The notes: generated by a model from the sequence alone, not told the origin. Counted from the first letter of the stretch, positions 3,223 through 56,250 are shown. The stretch is DNA of 58,631 nucleotides from Mycoplasmataceae bacterium (GCA_031259945.1 JAIRKU010000004.1:1-58631); one strand, 5' to 3'. Numbers and translations: made by a program.

Positions 3223-4614
3223 ATGAAATCGGTAAAAAATAACCACATGGCTCAAGAGAAAATTGTTAATTTTCTTAAAACTTATGGTTTTATTTTTCCT
3301 AGTTCAGAGATTTATGGTGGGTTAGCAAACGCATGGGATTATGGACCATTAGGCATTTTGCTAAAAAAAAATATTAAAGATCTATGATGAAGGACTTTTA
3401 TCATTAAAGATTCGCAAGCTGTCGGAATAGATTCTTCAATAATTGTAAATCCTAATATTTGAAAAGCTAGTGGTCATATCGGTAGCTTTAGTGATCCGCT
3501 CATAGAGTGCAAAAATTGTCACAATCGTTTTCGAGCAGATAAATTAATTGAAGAAAATTTAAGTGATGTTCAAATTACCGAACAAACAGATTTTAAAATT
3601 TTGGAAGGAATAATTGCTAAGAACCAAATAAAATGCCCGGTTTGTGGCAAAATGAGTTGAACACCGATTCGTCACTTTAATTTGATGTTTAAAGTAAATC
3701 AAGGAATTGTAGACGATAACACTCAAATAAATTATTTACGACCAGAAACTGCTCAGGGTATTTTTGTTAATTTTGCTAATGTTCAACGCACGATGAGATT
3801 GAAGCTACCATTTGCAATTGGACAAATTGGTAAATCATTTCGTAATGAAATTACTCCTGGGAATTTCATTTTTCGTACACGTGAATTTGAACAAATGGAG
3901 TTAGAATATTTTGTTTATCCCAAACAAGCTGATGAAATTTTTACCAATCAATTAGATAAAATTAAAAAATTTTTATATGAAACTTTAGAATTAAATAAAT
4001 CAAATATACGCCTACGCGAGCATGATAAGAAAGAATTGTCACATTATGCAAAGAAAACTATTGATATTGAGTATAGTTTTCCACATGGTTGAAAAGAATT
4101 GTGGGGGATCGCCAACCGTACAGACTACGATTTAAAATCACATATAGAGCACTCTAAAGCGAATCTTTGATATTTAGATCCATCCACATCAGAAAAAGTT
4201 ATTCCTTACGTAATTGAACCTTCTGTAGGTGTGGAGAGATTGTTATATGCTATTATTGTTGACAAATATGTAGTTGAAGAATTAGAAAATAACGAAACGC
4301 GTGAAGTTTTACATTTACCATATAAGTTAGCTCCTTACAAAATTGCAATATTACCACTTGTTAACAAATTAAATGCCCATGCGCGTAATGTTTTTGATGT
4401 GCTAATTGATAATGGGATTGAAGCTATTTATGATACGAGTGGTTCAATTGGGAAACGCTATCGACGTCAAGATGCAATCGGTACACCGTTTTGTGTAACA
4501 TACGACTTTGAAACTGATAACGACCAAAGGGTTACGATTCGTTATCGTGATTCCATGAAGCAAGAACGAGTCGCTATCAAAGATTTAAAAAGCTTTTTAG
4601 ACAGTCATGCTTAG
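3223..4614 (+). CDS. glyS: glycyl-tRNA synthetase (single-chain class II)
   Basis: The 463-residue protein is of the alpha2 (eukaryote/Mollicute-like) type. It begins with a [12 protein letters not shown] segment. Zinc-binding cysteine pairs follow (CKNC around residue 95 and CPVC around residue 138). Class II motif 2 (FRNEITP and [13 protein letters not shown]) and motif 3 ([12 protein letters not shown], around residues 328-340) are intact, and an anticodon-binding domain makes up the last 110 residues. Several Trp codons are TGA. It charges tRNA-Gly. An in-frame ATG at 3247 is an alternative start. The 3' end overlaps dnaG by 8 bases. Confidence 0.96.
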
Positions 4615-47129: not shown

Positions 47130-47408
47130 GTGAAAAAAAGGAACCTAAACGAAGATTTTGATGATTCTACAGCCATTTCTAGTGTTGTCTGTTCAAAGAA
47201 CGAAGCAGAACTCTTTTATTTAATCCGCCTGCAATTCCCTAAAGTTAATGTAGAAGAAATTAAAATTCATTCTTGAAAACAAATGATTAACAACCAAGGC
47301 GAGGTTATTTTAGTTCCGACATGAAATAGCAAAAACTATTTTCACAACTCCACTGTAACCTTAGGCTTCAATTACAACATTGCAAGATTGTTTTCACAAA
47401 AGAAATAA
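47130..47408 (+). CDS. hypothetical protein, 92 aa
   Basis: The frame starts at GTG 47130 behind a clear TAATGGAG ribosome site; the ATG at 47119 is in another frame that stops at once. It runs through two TGA Trp codons to TAA 47406-47408. The protein is soluble with a mixed helical/beta pattern (ELFYLIRLQFPKVNVEEIKI, then NNQGEVILVPTW). A weak hairpin (AGTC, GACT, then T5) lies 25 bases beyond the stop. Family not recognised. Confidence 0.7.
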
Positions 47409-47482
47409 AATAAAAACTAAAAATCAAACAGAGTCCTTAATAGACTTTTTATTTACTGTTGCACTTGCAAATGGAATTCAGC

Positions 47483-47585
47483 GTAACTATTCCCCACAAT
47501 CATAACCGTTATAAGTTATGATACTTTCATAGAACACCTTCTTTATTGGGCGTTCGACTTTTGGGTGTACATCTAAACAAAATTA
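47483..47585 (-). other. possible insertion-sequence remnant (3' end)
   Basis: GTAACTATTC at 47483-47492 equals the first ten bases of the inverted repeats found at 10112 and 58514. On the minus strand a short open stretch (HPKVERPIKKVFYESIITYN) runs into a TAG placed inside this repeat. This is how many transposase genes end inside their right terminal repeat. No transposase motif is left to confirm it. Confidence 0.3.
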
Positions 47586-47615
47586 GTCAAAAAATTATTA
47601 GGTAAAAACAAAAGA

Positions 47616-47885
47616 TTACTTGTAATGTTCGCGACAAGTTAATAGATGAATCATATCTTGATTAACAACATAAACAATCGATGTTCATGTGTGATTCTTC
47701 TGCTTCAAAATCCTGGTCCACGATGTTTTAAAGGCTTAGGTTTCCCTATGCCGTTAAATGCGAAGTATGTATGCCATCTAATAAACTATGAATTTTATTT
47801 AAAACTTTTTTATTGTGTTCAGATTTTCATTTTTTAATATCTGATTGAAAGTCTGGCGTATAAAAAATATATAAGTTTTAGGCAT
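47616..47885 (-). pseudogene. YoeB-type toxin (RelE superfamily), frameshifted
   Basis: Starting at ATG 47885 the minus strand encodes a YoeB-like protein spread over shifted frames. The pieces read MPKTYIF, YTPDFQSDIKKW, then GIGKPKPLKH and GFWSRRITHEHR, then IVYVVNQDM ending TCREHYK and TAA 47618-47616. The order and the motifs GKPKPLKH, WSRR-x3-EHR and a terminal HY equal those of YoeB mRNA interferases. Breaks lie at the A6 run 47862-47867, near 47755 and near 47680. The first codons overlap the antitoxin-like gene by 8 bases, as in working toxin-antitoxin pairs. Confidence 0.8.
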
Positions 47886-48090
47886 TATTTATAAAATCCT
47901 GTACTTTTTGCAAAGACACAGCCTCAGCTCTTTTCATATTTTTAGAACGTTCTCAAACAATATCTAATCTATCTGGTTGTAGTTCGCTTTTTAGGTCAAC
48001 AACTTTATCGATAAATTTTTTAGCCATATTTCCATCAGTAAAGTCACCAACGATTTTATTATCATTAATTTTTATAATTATTTGAACCAT
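47878..48090 (-). CDS. putative antitoxin of the decayed YoeB-like module, 70 aa
   Basis: An intact frame runs from ATG 48090-48088 (GGAG site about 9 bases upstream) to TAA 47880-47878. The charged 70-residue protein (DNKIVGDFTDGNMAKKFIDK, then DIVWERSKNMKRAEAVS) does not show the YefM/Phd pattern usual for YoeB partners. The antitoxin role is inferred from position, size and the 8-base overlap with the toxin. It may be a different antitoxin family or be maintained only as an immunity gene. Confidence 0.6.
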
Positions 48091-48114
48091 AGTTCCAACT
48101 CCTAATATAACTTT

Positions 48115-48324
48115 TTAAATTGTAAACCATTTTTGTAAATAATCAGCGCCTTTGCTCCGTTGATTATAATCTTCGTTCAAAATCAAAGCTGAATTAGCAT
48201 ATAACAAAATTTCATATAAATCCAAAGAAATAATACACTTGATTAAATTAGCGATAAACCTAAAATAAAAATATGTAAAAATATAAAATCATTTAATGCA
48301 TTTTACTAAAATTATGATATACAT
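48115..48324 (-). CDS. doubtful small ORF or gene remnant, 69 aa
   Basis: The frame runs from ATG 48324 to TAA 48117-48115. The first 30 codons are A+T noise-like and hydrophobic. The last 40 (SLDLYEILLYANSALILNED, then QRSKGADYLQKWF) look like real protein. There is no ribosome site. It is probably the 3' part of a lost gene lying upstream of the antitoxin-like gene and divergent from the ATPase at 48330. Confidence 0.3.
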
Positions 48325-48329
48325 ACAAT

Positions 48330-49580
48330 ATGAAAAATAAACTATATAAACCAAGAATTATTGATCAAATATTACAACAATATATTTGCACATTTTCCGC
48401 CGTTCTATTAGAAGGTCCCAAATGATGCGGCAAATCATGGACTGCCAAACAAATATCTAATTCATACATTGATCTTACAGATCCTACTAATAACTTTCAA
48501 AATTTAAAACTATTAAAATTAGATATTGAGCGTTCTTTCATTGGTGAATTTCCTAGAACAATTGATGAATGAGAGTTATTGCCATCAATTTGGGACGCCT
48601 TGCGCAATAAGATAGATGATAAATGAGAAGGTAAAATTATATTAACTGGATCAACCAAACCAGAAAGAACAAAGGTTTTTCATTCAGGGGCAGGCAGAAT
48701 TGCTTCTCTTAAAATGAGACCAATGTCTCTATATGAAAGTAATGATTCAAATGGTTCTGTGTCATTACAAGATTTATTTGAACACAAAAAAATCATTGGT
48801 GAAAGCAATAAAACTCTTGATAACTTGATTGATTTCATTTTAAGGGGAGGATGACCGGAAAATTTAAACAAAACCATTGAACAAGCACTCTTATTCAATC
48901 GTAACTACATTGAAGCAGTTAGTAATGAGAGAAATATCGAATTTTCTATCAGTAAATACAACAAAACAGCCATGCTGTACGTCATTAAATCTATCGCTAG
49001 AAATGATCAAACATTTATAAAAAATAAAACTATTATGAATGAGACCAATATTTCAGAACCAACTTTAAACAAATATTTTGATATTCTAGAACGCTTTAAT
49101 TTGATTGAATCCTTGCCGAGCTGATCTCAAAACTTACGATCAAATCTAAGAATTAAAAAGAGTTCTAAAATTCGTTTGATTGATCCATCGTTATCTTGTG
49201 CAGCATTAGGATTAACCCATGAATCATTACTTAATGATTTAAGATTTTTAGGGTTTTTATTCGAATCCTTAGTTGTAAGGGATTTATTAACTTATATCAA
49301 TGTATTTGATGGTAAGTTATTTCATTTAAACCAAGATGATACTGACGAAGTCGATTTAATCGTAGAAAAACCTAACGGAGATTGAGGCATTATAGAAGTC
49401 AAGTTAGGCGCTAGCGATATCGAAAAATGAGAATCGAAATTAGACAAACTAATTTCCAAAATGATTAATAGTGGCGCAAAACCACCTAAATTTAAAGCAA
49501 TCATTAGTGGAGTATCTAAATATGCTTATGCAACCTCAAAGAATACATATGTAATACCAATTACTTGTTTGAGAGAATAA
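48330..49580 (+). CDS. DUF4143-type AAA+ ATPase, copy 1
   Basis: The 416-residue frame has an N-terminal P-loop EGPKWCGKS at about 28-36, a DLTDP-like segment, the REFPRTIDEWE-like acidic stretch (here EFPRTIDEWELL) and sensor segment ILTGSTKP. A C-terminal DUF4143 nuclease-like domain has RLIDPSLSCAALG, FESLVVRDLLTY and DEVDLIVE, and then IIEVKLG, matching the D...E-x-K core of PD-(D/E)xK folds. Such ATPases are frequent in accessory islands and of unsettled function. TATGAT at 48313 may be its -10 box. It converges with the primase-helicase gene, 11 bases away. Confidence 0.88.
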
Positions 49581-49591
49581 CTCTATAAAAT

Positions 49592-52333
49592 TTACATATC
49601 AAATAAAGTAGGTTGATTGATTGACTTACTCTGAAAATCATCTAAAATTTCGTTTGCAGTTACCGGATCATCAATTTTAAGTATTGTTTGCTCAAAATTT
49701 TGATATGAAAAAGGATTAATCCCTCCATATCAAACAATTCGTTTATCAATTACAATCATATTTGGTAATTCAGAGCTAGTTAATTTTGTAATGTTTATTG
49801 CAAACGGTTCGTATTTTGAGTTAAGTAGTATCGAAGTGTCTACTTTCATATATTTTATTAATTCATTAATTTTTTGTTTGCTACATTCATTAATGAGCAA
49901 ATGAATACTAATTTTTGCATTTAAAAGATCTTGCTTCAATAAATTTTCATAATTTTGTTCGGTATAAATGAAAACTGTATTACGATTACTCTTAGTTGAA
50001 CTAGCTACATAACCAAGACTGTTATAACCTGACTGACGAATGTCGTACATTCTTCTGAAAATATAATTTCTAATGTCAACATAATCGTAGACCTTCAATT
50101 CCTTAACTTTATTAATTTCGCGGTGTAATCTACCAACATATTGTGATAATGTGCCGATTCATCGAAAAGGAGATGTAATGAATAATGTATCGAGTCTTTC
50201 GTCATCAAAGCCTTCGCCAATAAATTTGCCTGTGGCTAAAATAATGAAATGTTCATCGTTATAGGATTTTAATTTAGCAAAATTTTCCAATCGTTCTTTT
50301 TCGGATAATTGTCCGTGGAGCATTAAGCAATTAGGACAAAATGATAAAATCTTGCTCCATAATTTTTGAATATGACTTAAACGATCTGTCAAAACAAGAA
50401 TATGCTTTTTCTGGTTGTATTCATGTTTGATGTCATCAATAATCATATTATTTCTATCTTTATCTACTATTAGTTCACTTACCATTGCTGTAGTGTTATT
50501 TATGAAATTACTAGTAAATCGTGTGAATCTCGGAATTAGAATTTTTCGAAATTTATCTTCATTAATTGTTTCTTGTTCAAATAAAACTGGTCCAATAATT
50601 AATTCAATAGTTTTTTCTAATCTATCAGAACGTTCAATTGTAGCTGTTTGACCGTAGATGTATTTAGGGTTAAAATCACGAAGAACAGTTTGATACGTAT
50701 ATGAACTTGCATGATGCACTTCATCACAAATGACTAACCCATATAAATTTTTCATTTTATTTCTTAGTTCCACATTGCTATTTAATAATTGAATAGTACA
50801 AATGTCAATCGAACCTGAATATTGAGGATTTTTACTATTAACAATTCTGACGTATGAAGAGTTATCATTAGTTTCAAATTTTAAAAATTTATTCAGAGAG
50901 TTATATCATTGTTCGGCTAGTTCTATTCTGTCAACGATAATCAAGGTGTTAATTTTTAACTGGTCAACTAAAGATATAGCAACTAATGTTTTACCATGAC
51001 CTGTCGGAGCCACCAAAATTCCATAATTCTTCAATAGTAATTTTTCAGCTGCTTGTGCTTGTCATTTTTTTAATTTTCCGGTAAACTTTATATTTATTTT
51101 TTTACCATTATTAGTTTTAACTTCTAATACATAATTAATTTTTAAAATTTTTAGTATTTGCAGTACTTGATCTAAGCAACCTCTTGGTAAAATGAGCAGT
51201 TTATTTTCCATGTCTTCCTTAAATAATGAATAAATTCTAGGAACTTGGTAATTCGAAATGTGTTTTCTTTCGTTAATATAGTATTGTTTATTGACAAATG
51301 ATGAAAGTCTTTTAAAAAAGCGTCTAGCTTTATTGGAAATCTCTTCTCAATGTAAATAAATTTCGTTAGAAAATGTGATTTTGATGTTTTCGTTAAAGTC
51401 TTCTTTAGTTAATTGATCAATTTCCACATTGACATTTCTATGAAAATTTCCTAATTCAGTAAATTCGTCTAATTTTGATACGATTTGAAGAATTTGATCA
51501 TATTTAACGAACCGCTTGCTATTTAAGTATCTAAATGGTTCAACAATGGGTTGAAAATAATCGTCAATAAAAATAGTTTTATTTTCTTTAATCCTCCCAC
51601 CATTTAAGGGCAAAGCAATTAAATTGCCAACTCCATTCTTATCGATAAAATCTTGACTTGGAAACATACGATCGTATGAAAGAAATGATAAATTGGGATA
51701 TTCATTCATTGTTTGAGTTAAAAGAAATGAACCAAATTTTCTTGCTTCTACAGCTTTTAACAATTTCTCAAAAAATATTCATACATGAATTCCCTCCCCA
51801 GACTGCGATACTTCTAACAGATAATCAATGTTAAATTTTTTCATAATTTTAGTTAAATGTAAAACTTCTGATATGTAATCTTTATTTTTCTTAGCATCAA
51901 AATCAAAAACTAATAATTTAGTCATATTATTTTCTAACATAGGATAAATTCCTATGAAAATATCACCATTTAAATGGCTATTTAAAACTTTCGGAGTTAA
52001 TGGTTCATATTTTTTATTTTGACATTTGTCACATTTTAATCGTGGTTTTCCACATAAGAAATAATCTCATAAATTTTTACACTTTATCTGCCACCAATGT
52101 TTGCCAGTAGTTGAATTAATTTTCATTTCCGCATAATGGTTAAAATTACCAGCAAAATATCTAAAAAATGTATTTATGTTTTTATTGACATTCAGAGAAT
52201 CAATATCATTATCGCTTTTGTTATTTCGAGAATTTAATAACAAGTTTAATCGTTCAATTTCAGCCCTAGCACTTTTTAATTTTTCAATCAATTCTTCTTT
52301 AGATAAATTAATCAAATTTTCATCATGTGTCAT
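49592..52333 (-). CDS. TOTE-type archaeo-eukaryotic primase fused to SF2 helicase
   Basis: The 913-residue frame starts at ATG 52333-52331, reads through many TGA Trp codons and ends at TAA 49594-49592. After a coiled coil (ELIEKLKSARAEIERLNLLL) comes a primase domain. It has a cysteine cluster (CGKPRLKCDKC), a PLT-x-H-x-GIYP region, catalytic DFD at about D144/D146 and GEGIHVWIFF with H183. SYDRMFPSQDF and GNLIALPLNGG complete it, as in the primase of TOTE conflict systems. Next is an SF2 helicase with APTGHGKT (about 442-449), CDEVHHA (about 536-542), GQTAT and QYVGRLHRE. Both modules look intact. Confidence 0.85.
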
Positions 52334-52571
52334 CTTTCAATATATTAACAAAAATACAATTAAAATAACAAACATATTGCTTGGCTAAAATCACAATTAA
52401 TAACACCAACACGATCCAACCTTAATATTTTTATTTGATAACAATGCATTGAAGCTATGAATATACTTAAGACATATGTATATGTAAAAATTAAATATCT
52501 ATTAATAAAAAAATACATTTTTGTATAAAATTTAACATAAATTAATAATTTTTGACATATAATTTCAATCT
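52334..52571. promoter_or_regulatory. divergent intergenic region with -10 box for ATPase copy 2
   Basis: This A+T-rich spacer separates the primase-helicase gene (left, minus strand) from ATPase copy 2 (right). TATAAT at 52558-52563 ends 8 bases before the ATG at 52572 without a ribosome site. The near-palindrome ACATATGTATATGT at about 52474-52487 lies roughly midway and might serve both genes. No ORF was seen. Confidence 0.45.
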
Positions 52572-53756
52572 ATGGAAATCAAAAGAAATAAATATCTTGA
52601 ATTGTTAGCTAATAAGAAAAATAATGGTCTTATTAAAATTTTAATCGGAACGCGAAAAGTTGGCAAGACTACCATTTTAAGACAATTCGCTACTTTACAT
52701 TTAAAAAATGAAGTAGTGCATACATATGATTTCAATGTCTATGAAAATCAAAACAAATATAGAGATCTTGATTATTTTAATCAAGAGATTCTTAATAAAC
52801 TAGTGAAAGATAAAATGAACTATTTATTTTTTGATGAAATTCAGGAAATTACCGGATGAGAAAAAATTATTAATAGTATATCTTTACTAAAAAATATTGA
52901 TATTTATATCACAGGGTCCAATTCTAAATTATTATCATCAGAAATATCCACATTATTAACTGGTAAAAATGCAAAAATTTATGTTTATCCATTAAGTTTT
53001 AAAGAATATTATGATTTTAAGAATTCCAATGAAAAAGAAAAAGTCTTCCAGGAGTACATTGAATTTGGAGCGATGCCTAAATGTTGCTTGACTGAGAAAA
53101 AATCAGAAAAAAACGAATACCTTAGAATGCTTTTTTCTGATGTCATCAACAACGACATCATCAATCGCTATAAGATTTTGGATATTAAAGAATTCCATAA
53201 CATTTTTTATTTTTTAATGGAAAATATTGGGACTGAATTATCTATTAATAAAATTGGTAACATTATTAGACAAAAGGACAAATCGGTTATTTCCAATAAT
53301 ACCATTTCTAATTACATTGAATATTTATGTAATTGCTTCTTGTGTTCTAAGATTAATAAAATTAACATTAAAGGTAAAACTGTTCTCGAAACTAATTACA
53401 AAATATATGCATATGACGTAGGAATTAGAAACTCATTTATATCGTCATTTAGTTTTAATCGTGGAAAACTTTTAGAAAATTTAGTGTATATTGAATTATT
53501 AAGAAACGGATATGAAGTTAATGTCGGTCAAGATCGATTTATTCCTGAAGTTGATTTTGTCGCTAAAAAAAATAATGAATATATTTATATACAAGTATGT
53601 GAAAATTTAAATGAGAACAACCAAGCTAATGAAATTGGTAATTTATTAAAAATAAAAGACGGCAGAAAACTTTTCATTAGTAAAGATTATTTTAATAAGT
53701 TTGAAAATGGTATTCAGATGATAAACATTATTGAATGATTGCTGATTGAAAAATAA
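52572..53756 (+). CDS. DUF4143-type AAA+ ATPase, copy 2
   Basis: The 394-residue frame has P-loop GTRKVGKTT at about 26-34 and Walker B YLFFDEIQEI at about 88-97. Sensor segment YITGSNSKLL and the PLSFKEYYDF motif typical of this ATPase group follow. A winged-helix part and the C-terminal DUF4143 domain (YAYDVGIRNSF, RGKLLENLVYIELLRNGYEV, PEVDFVAKK, YIYIQV) complete it. In the last part the E-x-K of the nuclease-like core is Q-V-C, so it may be inactive as a nuclease. It is more like the remnant at 23116 than like copy 1. Confidence 0.88.
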
Positions 53757-53815
53757 TTTTTATCTATGCTATGTCTTAATTATTTAGAAACTAGCAATTT
53801 TTAATAGTCCAATTT

Positions 53816-53845
53816 TTGATAAGCTAAATTAATCGAGACTATAAT
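53816..53845 (+). promoter_or_regulatory. promoter TTGATA-N18-TATAAT in front of the tiny RNA
   Basis: TTGATA at 53816-53821 and TATAAT at 53840-53845 are 18 bases apart. The predicted start is about 53851, directly at the stem described next, and no coding gene follows on this strand for 600 bases. Confidence 0.55.
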
Positions 53846-53848
53846 TTT

Positions 53849-53905
53849 AAAGGGTAAAGTTGTGAAGTCGGCCCTGGGACCAAGACCACTCTTTACTCTT
53901 TTTAT
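53849..53905 (+). ncRNA. candidate tiny RNA: a terminator hairpin directly behind a promoter
   Basis: AAGGGTAAAG (53850-53859) pairs with CTTTACTCTT (53891-53900; one G-T pair), followed by T-rich sequence. The 31-base loop is unusually G+C-rich (GTCGGCCCTGGGACC) and can form an inner GGTCC-like pairing. With the promoter just upstream, the product would be about 55 bases. It may be a sponge or decoy RNA, or simply a terminator between convergent genes. Confidence 0.45.
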
Positions 53906-54348
53906 TTGTATGGTAAGTATTTAGCAGCACATTTATTTGTTTTGTTCCTAATTCTACGTTTAATAGCGCGTTTAGTTTTATGTCCGATATAACGTACGAT
54001 AAATTGTTTGTCGCTAGTCTGAGCCGTTTTTAATATCGTTCTAAAGAAAGCAGTGCCTCTTATTCCACGTAACAAACCTTCGGTAGCGCCATAAGCCATA
54101 TCTTTTACAACGTTATCTCATTTCTCTCAGTAACTCTTTTTACTCATACGAACGGCACGATTGACTGTTCTATGAAAAACTATAACTCTCTCTATTCAAA
54201 TGGCAACTCAAGGTATGTATGTAAACCCTACGAATAAAGAATTTTGTCTTAAGAATTCACCAACAGATCAACCCCAAGCTATATTGCCTAAATAATAACT
54301 ACCGGTGCTTTCGGCATTTATAAATGGTTCGATAAATGTAACATAAAT
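53902..54348 (-). pseudogene. N-terminally truncated membrane/surface protein fragment
   Basis: An open minus-strand frame of 148 codons ends at TAA 53904-53902. It has no plausible start: the first codon after the upstream stop is ATT, and the next in-frame ATG lies far inside. It contains aromatic helices (NIAWGWSVGEFLRQ, then FTYIPWVAIWIERVIVFHR) and a very basic tail (HKTKRAIKRRIRNKTNKC). It looks like the 3' part of a larger gene. No family recognised. A gene with an unusual ATT start cannot be excluded. Confidence 0.5.
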
Positions 54349-54382
54349 TTATTGCGACGCTTTCCCTTTTGAATGACATTAT

Positions 54383-54437
54383 GTACAACTTATATGTCAA
54401 ACTATTGTACGAAGAAGCACTAAAAATACTTTATAAT
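54383..54437 (+). promoter_or_regulatory. promoter region of the lipoprotein gene with dyad
   Basis: TATAAT at 54432-54437 lies 13 bases before the ATG at 54451. Upstream, GTACAA (54383-54388) and TTGTAC (54405-54410) form a dyad with a 16-base centre, ending near the -35 position. It recalls the GTAC-containing dyad before manA. Confidence 0.4.
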
Positions 54438-54450
54438 TCTATCTACATAA

Positions 54451-56109
54451 ATGCGAGTGAGTGCTTTGATAAAGAGGTGTTTTTTGATATTTATACTGCT
54501 AATATCAGCGGTTACTATTTCTTCGTGCAAAGATAAACTGCCTTACGCTACTATCACTCTTAATCAAAACGAAATTACACTTAATCATACGAATAATACT
54601 AGTGTTATTATCGCAACAGTTAAATTAGCAGATAGTTCATCTCCCAAACAACCAGCAATTTATGAATGTGATAATATCAAAAATACTCCTATTTTATATT
54701 TGCAAGATTTTCAACAAAAAAACAATAATGAACTTGTCATTATGTTAGATGATGACCAAGAAATACCAGAAGCTTGTTCATATACAATTTTTGCTACTTA
54801 TGATAATTCATCCAATAAACCAAGAATTCCAATTAAAATAAACATCGAAAAATACATTCCCGATTATCCAAATGCACAGATAAGTGTTTCTAAAGATACT
54901 ATTAATTTAAACCAAACTGACTACAATGATAGTATAACGTCAACTGTCAGTTTAAATCCTCTACCTACGCAAGAAACCCCAATAGTTACTTATGACTATT
55001 CAGAAGTTGATAACTTACCAGTTTACTTTAATATTGATCAAAATATTTTAAACATAACATTAGAAAAAAATGTAGAAATTGCAGAAGACACAACCTTTTC
55101 CATTTATGCTACATATCCGCATTCTAAAAATAAACCCCAAGTACAAGTAACGATTAATGTTGAAAAATACACCGCACCTGTTCCTACACCAGAAGAATGA
55201 GATGATGCATGAATTCCAAAAGCTGATTTAAAAATTTCAGGCACTACTTTGACAGGTATTAAAAAAGTGACTAAGAGCACACTGCATGTCCCACGTGAAG
55301 TGACCAACATTGCTAATAAAGCTTTTGCAAATAACGCTTTAAAAGATGTCACGACTGTAGATTTTCCTGATGATAGTAAATGTGTAACCATTGGAGAATC
55401 CGCGTTTTATGACTGTAGCACTATTAAAGTCATCAATTTTCCCAAAACACTTGCCAATATTGGTACCTCGTCTCTTTATTTCTGTAAAGCATTAGAAAAG
55501 ATAGATTTTTCTTCTTGCACCGCACTTACTAACATACCTGGTTCCATGGCGCAAGGCTGTGATGGGTTAACTACAGTTCGATTACCACCCCAGTGTGTTT
55601 CCATCGGCGAAAAGGCATTTCAAGATGCATTAATACTCACTGGTGATTTGATTATTCCTAAATATGTTAAATCTATTGGTAGCGAAGCATTTCTCAATGC
55701 CGGTAGTAATCCTACTTCTGCCCGAACTTCAATAAATTTAATATTTGAAGAAGGCAGCAATTTGAGTTCCGCAGCTTATGCTTCATTTTCTAGCATGTCT
55801 TGTGTTGGGACAATAGACTTTCCATCTAGCTTAAAAACATATGGTAATAATTTCTTTGCCTTTAACCACGCTGATGTTATCAAAATTAATAGTCGCTCGG
55901 GAAATTTATTTGGTATGAATTGTTTTGATGGAGTTCATGCAAAAGAATTATATCTAAACGTGGATGCCTACTTCCCATATCCATCAAGTTTTCTTTCTTG
56001 ATCTCATATTTTGTTAAAAGATGATGGCAAAATTTATGTCCCTAATTCATTAATCGATCAATTTAAAAGTGGTTGAAGTGATTTTTCTCAGAAGTTCTAT
56101 CCCATCTAG
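54451..56109 (+). CDS. BspA-like leucine-rich-repeat lipoprotein
   Basis: The 552-residue protein has a lipoprotein signal peptide ending at C26 (AVTISSC). Two tandem Ig-like repeats of about 105 residues follow: each begins with a SxxxINLN/TLNQNEITLN-type strand and ends (I/F)YATY...NKP...(I/V)NIEKY or close to it. From about residue 265 there are BspA-type repeats (LRR_5) with the pattern IGESAFYDCSTIKVINFPKT and IGSEAFLNAG. Such proteins bind host surfaces and are common in mucosal bacteria. The start and apparent leaderless promoter fit. Confidence 0.9.
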
Positions 56110-56223
56110 GGTTTTTAAACAACGTTTTAAAATAACTACAAACGAGTTTTATGAGAAAGTAACAAAATCACCGATCTTTTAAATTATTTTTAGATCACAA
56201 TACTATATATCAACATAAGTGTG

Positions 56224-56229
56224 TATAAT
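56224..56229 (+). promoter_or_regulatory. -10 box for gap-pgk
   Basis: TATAAT 43 bases before the gap ATG implies a leader of about 36 bases with ribosome site TTGGAG at 56258. Confidence 0.5.
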
Positions 56230-56250
56230 GGAAAACAAATATAAAAATAA

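What the first reader, a model, noticed from the sequence alone, without database searches (positions are those of the whole stretch)
48330..53756. TOTE-type primase-helicase framed by two DUF4143 ATPases: a possible conflict/defence cassette in a reduced genome
Seen: a 913-residue protein joins a coiled coil, a cysteine cluster, an archaeo-eukaryotic-type primase core (DFD, then GIHVW) and a complete SF2 helicase. One AAA+ DUF4143 ATPase converges on it (11 bases apart) and a second diverges from it. Known: the primase matches the domain described for TOTE conflict systems, NTP-dependent systems thought to act against invasive DNA, and DUF4143 ATPases are common in accessory islands. Inference: the three genes may be one functional cassette, possibly anti-phage or plasmid maintenance. 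TGA Trp codons throughout show it has long been adapted to this genetic code.
Basis: partly seen in the sequence, partly recalled or inferred. Interest (0 to 1): 0.82.

Follow-up and report, generated by a model that had tools for sequence, protein, structure and literature searches.

The report
TOTE primase-helicase beside two mobile ATPases
A small bacterial genome carries a probable anti-invader enzyme that copies and unwinds DNA, flanked by two ATPase genes; the enzyme belongs to a known family, often has such an ATPase as its next-door gene in other bacteria, but in this lineage the three genes arrived separately rather than as one fixed cassette.

Summary
Observation confirmed. The 49592-52333 (-) gene encodes a 913-aa AEP-TOTE primase (PF22548, E 1e-70) fused to an XPB-like SF2 helicase. 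The flanking genes are two AAA_14+DUF4143 ATPases.

The cassette idea is partly right. Across 80 TOTE loci in many phyla, DUF4143 is the commonest immediate neighbour: 8 seen, 0.28 expected. Six of the eight lie 1-47 bp upstream on the same strand. Adjacent slots exceed more distant slots 13-fold.

This three-gene layout is not a unit. None of about 120 TOTE loci shows the same bracket. In the window's genus both ATPase genes occur without TOTE, at 85-93% DNA identity against 74-79% for pgk. TOTE occurs without adjacent DUF4143 in the two other genomes of the family that carry it. All three sit in an 8.8-kb insertion between argS and gap that five related genomes lack at this site.

Side finding: each mobile ATPase unit is promoter plus gene. 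DUF4143 promoters in this genus, and in 20 independent relatives, carry gene-specific direct repeats with a 23-bp period.

Verdict: a new member of a known kind, with a real but loose DUF4143 partnership.

The parts
47409..56236 (.). Insertion (about 8.8 kb) between argS plus a small ORF (47130-47408) and gap-pgk
   Evidence: argS-(orf)-gap-pgk contiguous in G041, G037, G061, G065 and G066; homology resumes at 56237 or 56263
48239..49580 (+). Mobile unit 1: promoter/operator region plus DUF4143 gene
   Evidence: same block at 92% (G037:C30), 91% (G043:C22) and 86% (G044:C91) DNA identity with unrelated flanks; boundaries about -70 to -109 and at the stop codon
48261..48312 (+). Three TAAAAT repeats with 23-bp period (48261, 48284, 48307), a putative operator
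   Evidence: same register in all four genomes holding the unit
48330..49580 (+). AAA_14 + DUF4143 ATPase P0002, Walker A GPKWCGKS, PD-(D/E)XK-like EVD...EVK intact
   Evidence: Pfam 4e-29, PADLOC PDC-S01 1e-56, motifs
49592..52333 (-). TOTE-type AEP primase - XPB-like SF2 helicase - degenerate PLD, 913 aa
51488..52180 (-). AEP-TOTE domain (DFD 51896-51904; catalytic His codon 51785-51787)
   Evidence: PF22548 E 1.1e-70; invariant D144, D146, H183
52022..52081 (-). Cysteine (zinc) cluster C85, C94, C101, C104
   Evidence: near-invariant in 48 homologues; absent in a few close Bacilli relatives
49953..51076 (-). SF2 helicase core (Walker A GKT about 50987-50995, DEVHH about 50713-50725), approximate limits
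   Evidence: ResIII/Helicase_C; XPB fold match
49595..50053 (-). C-terminal PLD-like domain, HxK lost (LPNMIVIDKRIVWYGGINPFS at 49706-49768)
   Evidence: PLDc_2 in 39 of 47 homologues but not in this one; fold match to NucT/Nuc; HxK(x4)D kept in 27 of 119 homologues, not here
52484..53789 (+). Mobile unit 2: promoter plus DUF4143 gene
   Evidence: 93% in G037:C37 (premature stop), 85% in G043:C7, internal-deletion derivative 93% in G038:C23
52572..53756 (+). AAA_14 + DUF4143 ATPase P0003, Walker A GTRKVGKT, nuclease-like motif degenerate (EVD...QVC)
   Evidence: Pfam 2e-31 and 3e-20, PDC-S01 1.6e-118, motifs
54451..56109 (+). BspA-type leucine-rich-repeat lipoprotein, same insertion, probably unrelated
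   Evidence: PF13306 1.2e-24

Best explanation
An accessory genomic site between argS and gap has collected at least three independently mobile genes. The middle one is a self-contained TOTE-type conflict enzyme. A zinc cluster and primase-polymerase head are coupled to an XPB-like dsDNA translocase, which most likely engages foreign or stalled DNA, opens it using NTPs, and synthesises on or blocks it. Homologues with an intact PLD tail would also cut the DNA. In this lineage the tail has lost its active-site His and Lys, so damage would have to come from the primase-helicase itself or from a partner. The DUF4143 ATPases are frequent but interchangeable partners of TOTE across bacteria. Here they are recent, separately mobile promoter-plus-gene units, at most a loose functional association. 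Shown: domain make-up, loss of the PLD motif, insertion, independent mobility, enrichment of DUF4143 next to TOTE. Inferred: defence role, mode of action, any nuclease contribution by P0002.
For: Domains and fold. Rare accessory distribution: 3 of 95 family genomes, 28 of 395 class genomes. Insertion site empty in five relatives. Independent mobility: P0002 86-92% and P0003 85-93% DNA identity against pgk 74-79%; TOTE 75% and only in G044. Defence or toxin-antitoxin type neighbours elsewhere: AbiEii, Fic, RhuM, SLFN_AlbA_2, AAA-ATPase_like/PDDEXK_9, DNA methyltransferase plus helicase genes on a plasmid. No full-length relative in 50,697 phage records, but 21 plasmids with at least 80% coverage.
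Against: No activity data. The TOTE source paper was not in the library, so the conflict role rests on the Pfam name and on context. The three genes still lie within 5.4 kb, and two of this genome's three DUF4143 genes flank TOTE, so selection for proximity cannot be excluded. The 80-locus sample is the best-scoring part of at least 584 relatives, not a random draw.
Confidence: 0.6

Rival explanations
1. One reading: the three genes form one co-selected defence or plasmid-maintenance cassette, the ATPases acting as regulators or effectors of the TOTE enzyme.
For: DUF4143 is the commonest immediate neighbour of TOTE in other genomes, six times in tight upstream operons. G170 has both a P0002-like and a P0003-like gene within 5 kb of TOTE and no other DUF4143 in its genome.
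Against: Not operonic here (convergent and divergent). P0002 and P0003 persist in genomes without TOTE (G037, G043). TOTE occurs without adjacent DUF4143 in G044 and G003. Identity levels differ. TOTE-adjacent DUF4143 proteins come from several subfamilies.
Confidence: 0.2
2. The primase-helicase is a DNA repair or replication-restart enzyme (XPB/RadD-like helicase with a PrimPol), not a conflict system.
For: Closest solved helicases are XPB/Rad25; NCBIfam hits XPB and RadD below cut-off.
Against: Very patchy presence (3 of 95 in the family), plasmid carriage, toxin/defence-type neighbours; not expected of a housekeeping repair gene.
Confidence: 0.13
3. The gene is a replication module left by an integrated plasmid or phage.
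For: Relatives on conjugative plasmids near transfer genes; island genes are mobile.
Against: No replicon, integrase or relaxase gene recognised in the insertion; no full-length phage relative; relatives sit singly in varied contexts.
Confidence: 0.07

Closest known systems
TOTE conflict system AEP-helicase proteins (Pfam PF22548)
   Same: AEP-TOTE domain, cysteine cluster, N-terminal coiled coil, fused SF2 helicase; at least 584 relatives in genome contigs
   Different: C-terminal PLD-like tail shortened and without HxK; TGA-recoded Mollicute-type host; neighbours are DUF4143 ATPases in convergent/divergent layout
CRISPR-associated PrimPol (CAPP, PDB 7nqd/7p9j)
   Same: Prim-Pol fold (TM 0.77)
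   Different: No Cas gene was recognised among the neighbouring genes scanned here; helicase fusion instead of TPR
XPB/RadD-type SF2 helicases
   Same: Helicase core
   Different: Below equivalog cut-offs; fused to a primase
COG1373 / AAA_14-DUF4143 ATPases (PADLOC PDC-S01)
   Same: Both flanking genes; COG1373 is on a published list of horizontally transferred gut genes (PMC10782964)
   Different: Promoter-plus-gene mobile units with 23-bp-period repeats are not described in the papers found here

Membership tests
TOTE AEP-helicase | AEP-TOTE domain above curated cut-off | tested here: met
   238 bits against 27
TOTE AEP-helicase | AEP catalytic residues DxD and H | tested here: met
   D144, D146, H183 invariant
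TOTE AEP-helicase | Fused SF2 helicase with intact Walker A and DExH | tested here: met
TOTE AEP-helicase | C-terminal PLD nuclease active (HxK...D), present in part of the family and so not strictly defining | tested here: not met
   HxK absent; intact in only 27 of 119 homologues, others lack the tail or the motif
TOTE AEP-helicase | Conflict function against invasive DNA | not testable with these tools
   needs phage/plasmid assays
DUF4143 ATPase (PDC-S01) | AAA_14 plus DUF4143 above cut-offs | tested here: met
Fixed three-gene defence cassette | Same gene set and arrangement in other genomes | tested here: not met
   0 of about 120 TOTE loci; pairs only, or two DUF4143 on one side in G170
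Fixed three-gene defence cassette | Co-inheritance of the genes among relatives | tested here: not met
   units found separately

The most novel reading that the evidence does not exclude
DUF4143 ATPases are autonomous single-gene mobile units that carry their own 23-bp-iterated control region and dock beside conflict genes such as TOTE, where they become interchangeable regulators or effectors. The same control repeats might also mark or guide their insertion.
Probability: 0.3. Interest if true: 0.75.

Novelty: new member of a known kind. Interest (0 to 1): 0.5.

Why it matters
It replaces a guess about one cassette with a testable statement. TOTE primase-helicases have a statistically preferred neighbour, the DUF4143 ATPases, in several phyla, yet the pairing is loose and repeatedly re-formed. 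It also points to DUF4143 genes, which are abundant (0-46 per genome in this genus) and lack a known function, as mobile promoter-plus-gene units with a fixed 23-bp repeat geometry, which gives a handle on what they bind.

Tried and rejected
A genome-contig scan with the single protein found nothing; the alignment-based scan found at least 584 relatives. The TOTE source paper could not be found in the library. Terminal repeats or target duplications around the insertion: only weak AT-rich matches. Promoter scan no better than shuffles. A phage-replication origin was rejected because no full-length phage relatives exist. The 23-bp repeat signal was not seen in the DUF4143 subfamily found in viral contigs, so it is not universal.

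Full report
Check of the observation. The window is contig C23 of an 848-kb, 88% complete genome that reads TGA as Trp. Pfam identifies the central protein as AEP-TOTE (1.1e-70) plus SF2 helicase, and both flanking proteins as AAA_14+DUF4143. PADLOC calls the two ATPases PDC-S01. AlphaFold2 with 48 sequences gives a confident model (pLDDT 84.7) that Foldseek matches to the CRISPR-associated PrimPol (TM 0.77) and to XPB helicases.

A missed domain. Residues after the helicase form a PLD-like fold: 39 of 47 relatives hit PLDc_2, the profile matches NucT and Nuc, and the model's best fold hits include NucT, Nuc and Zucchini. Sequence alignments show three forms in the family: no tail (about 780-820 aa), a tail with intact HxKx4D (27 of 119), and a tail with the motif lost. 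The window protein and its G044 relative belong to the last. The loss is shared with the nearest Bacilli relatives, so it is old rather than a recent decay.

Where it sits. In G041, G037, G061, G065 and G066 argS, gap and pgk are contiguous. In the window an 8.8-kb stretch (47409-56236) separates them and contains the three genes and a BspA-type lipoprotein. AEP-TOTE occurs in 3 of 95 genomes of the family and 28 of 395 of the class, so it is accessory. In G044 the gene lies between genes that look like malic enzyme and UDP-galactopyranose mutase (both named by eye from their sequences). In G003 it is frameshifted and flanked by genes that look like glycosyltransferases. Neither has an adjacent DUF4143 gene.

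Separate histories. The P0002 gene with about 90 bp upstream occurs at 92% (G037), 91% (G043) and 86% (G044) DNA identity, always without TOTE beside it. P0003 with its upstream occurs at 93% (G037, premature stop), 85% (G043) and as a deletion remnant (G038). In G037, G043 and G044 pgk is 74-79% identical. G037 and G043 have no TOTE match at all. TOTE itself is 75% identical in G044 only. The similarity of the ATPase blocks stops at the stop codon or about 30 bp beyond it and about 70-110 bp before the start. These look like recent transfers of single genes, not of a cassette. The genomes are incomplete MAGs (77-86% complete for these), so a missing TOTE gene in any single one could be an assembly gap; the separate locations of the ATPase units do not depend on that.

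But a real partnership elsewhere. An alignment-based scan gave 80 named TOTE loci from many phyla. DUF4143 genes are immediate neighbours in 8, against 0.28 expected from counts of DUF4143 in the same genomes (P about 7e-10). Within the same loci, adjacent slots hold DUF4143 8/142 times and more distant slots 2/440 (p = 3e-4), so general island clustering does not explain it. Six of the eight are upstream on the same strand at 1-47 bp (Phocaeicola, Clostridia, Desulfonema, Paludibacteraceae, Ruminococcus, Desulfobacteria). In about 120 loci DUF4143 is the commonest neighbour family; SLFN_AlbA_2, RhuM/Fic, AbiEii and AAA-ATPase_like/PDDEXK_9 follow. The partner DUF4143 proteins belong to several subfamilies, so the pairing has formed repeatedly. 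The window's bracketed layout was not seen again.

How it most likely works. From the domains: NTP-driven translocation and opening of DNA by the XPB-like motor, with primer or strand synthesis by the PrimPol head (inference from family chemistry). With the PLD tail apparently dead, cutting, if any, would need a partner; P0002 keeps an ExK-type nuclease-like motif and P0003 does not. A conflict role is plausible from distribution and neighbours but was not tested.

A side finding. Upstream regions of 38 non-redundant DUF4143 genes in the genus show self-similarity at 23 bp (mean score 10.9 against 3.9 in shuffles, sd 0.2), with a second peak at 46 bp and only minor rises at 22 and 41; 20 independent genes outside the genus repeat the result (10.0 against 3.9). 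The strong signal comes from about a third of the genes (13 of 38 and 6 of 20 score 10 or more); many show no clear repeat. The repeats are gene-specific in sequence and often abut the -10 element. P0002 has three TAAAAT copies at 48261, 48284 and 48307, kept in all four genomes, one of them shifted by a base in G037. A DUF4143 subfamily from viral contigs lacks the peak, and another subfamily next to TOTE shows 32-33 bp spacing. The 23-bp period was noticed in the genus set first, so the 20-gene set is the actual test. An autoregulatory operator is the simplest reading.

Verdict. Ordinary in its core (a TOTE family member), partly right as a partnership, wrong as a fixed cassette. The novelty lies in the quantified DUF4143-TOTE adjacency and in the mobile ATPase units with their 23-bp repeats.

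Noticed in passing
48229-48329 and upstreams of DUF4143 genes in L066-L094, L145-L168, L294-L315: Gene-specific direct repeats with a 23-bp period in promoters of DUF4143 ATPase genes, replicated in an independent set; absent from the viral-contig subfamily; 32-33 bp spacing in another subfamily.
   Followed up: partly
whole genus: DUF4143 copy number ranges from 0 to 46 per genome of 0.5-1.3 Mb within one genus.
   Followed up: partly
L005 2121-4683: The G003 TOTE relative is split by a frameshift near 3970-4007.
   Followed up: no
47766-48136: A stretch of about 300 bp with a 70-aa ORF (47878-48090, -) recurs at 77% identity in G037:C7 and C31 and more weakly elsewhere in the window's own genome; possibly a small repetitive element.
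   Followed up: no
53902-54147: 81-aa basic ORF without any family hit on the - strand inside the insertion.
   Followed up: no
L043, L054, L055, L182, L222, L223: SLFN_AlbA_2/HATPase_c_4-type proteins are among the next commonest tight upstream neighbours of TOTE genes.
   Followed up: partly
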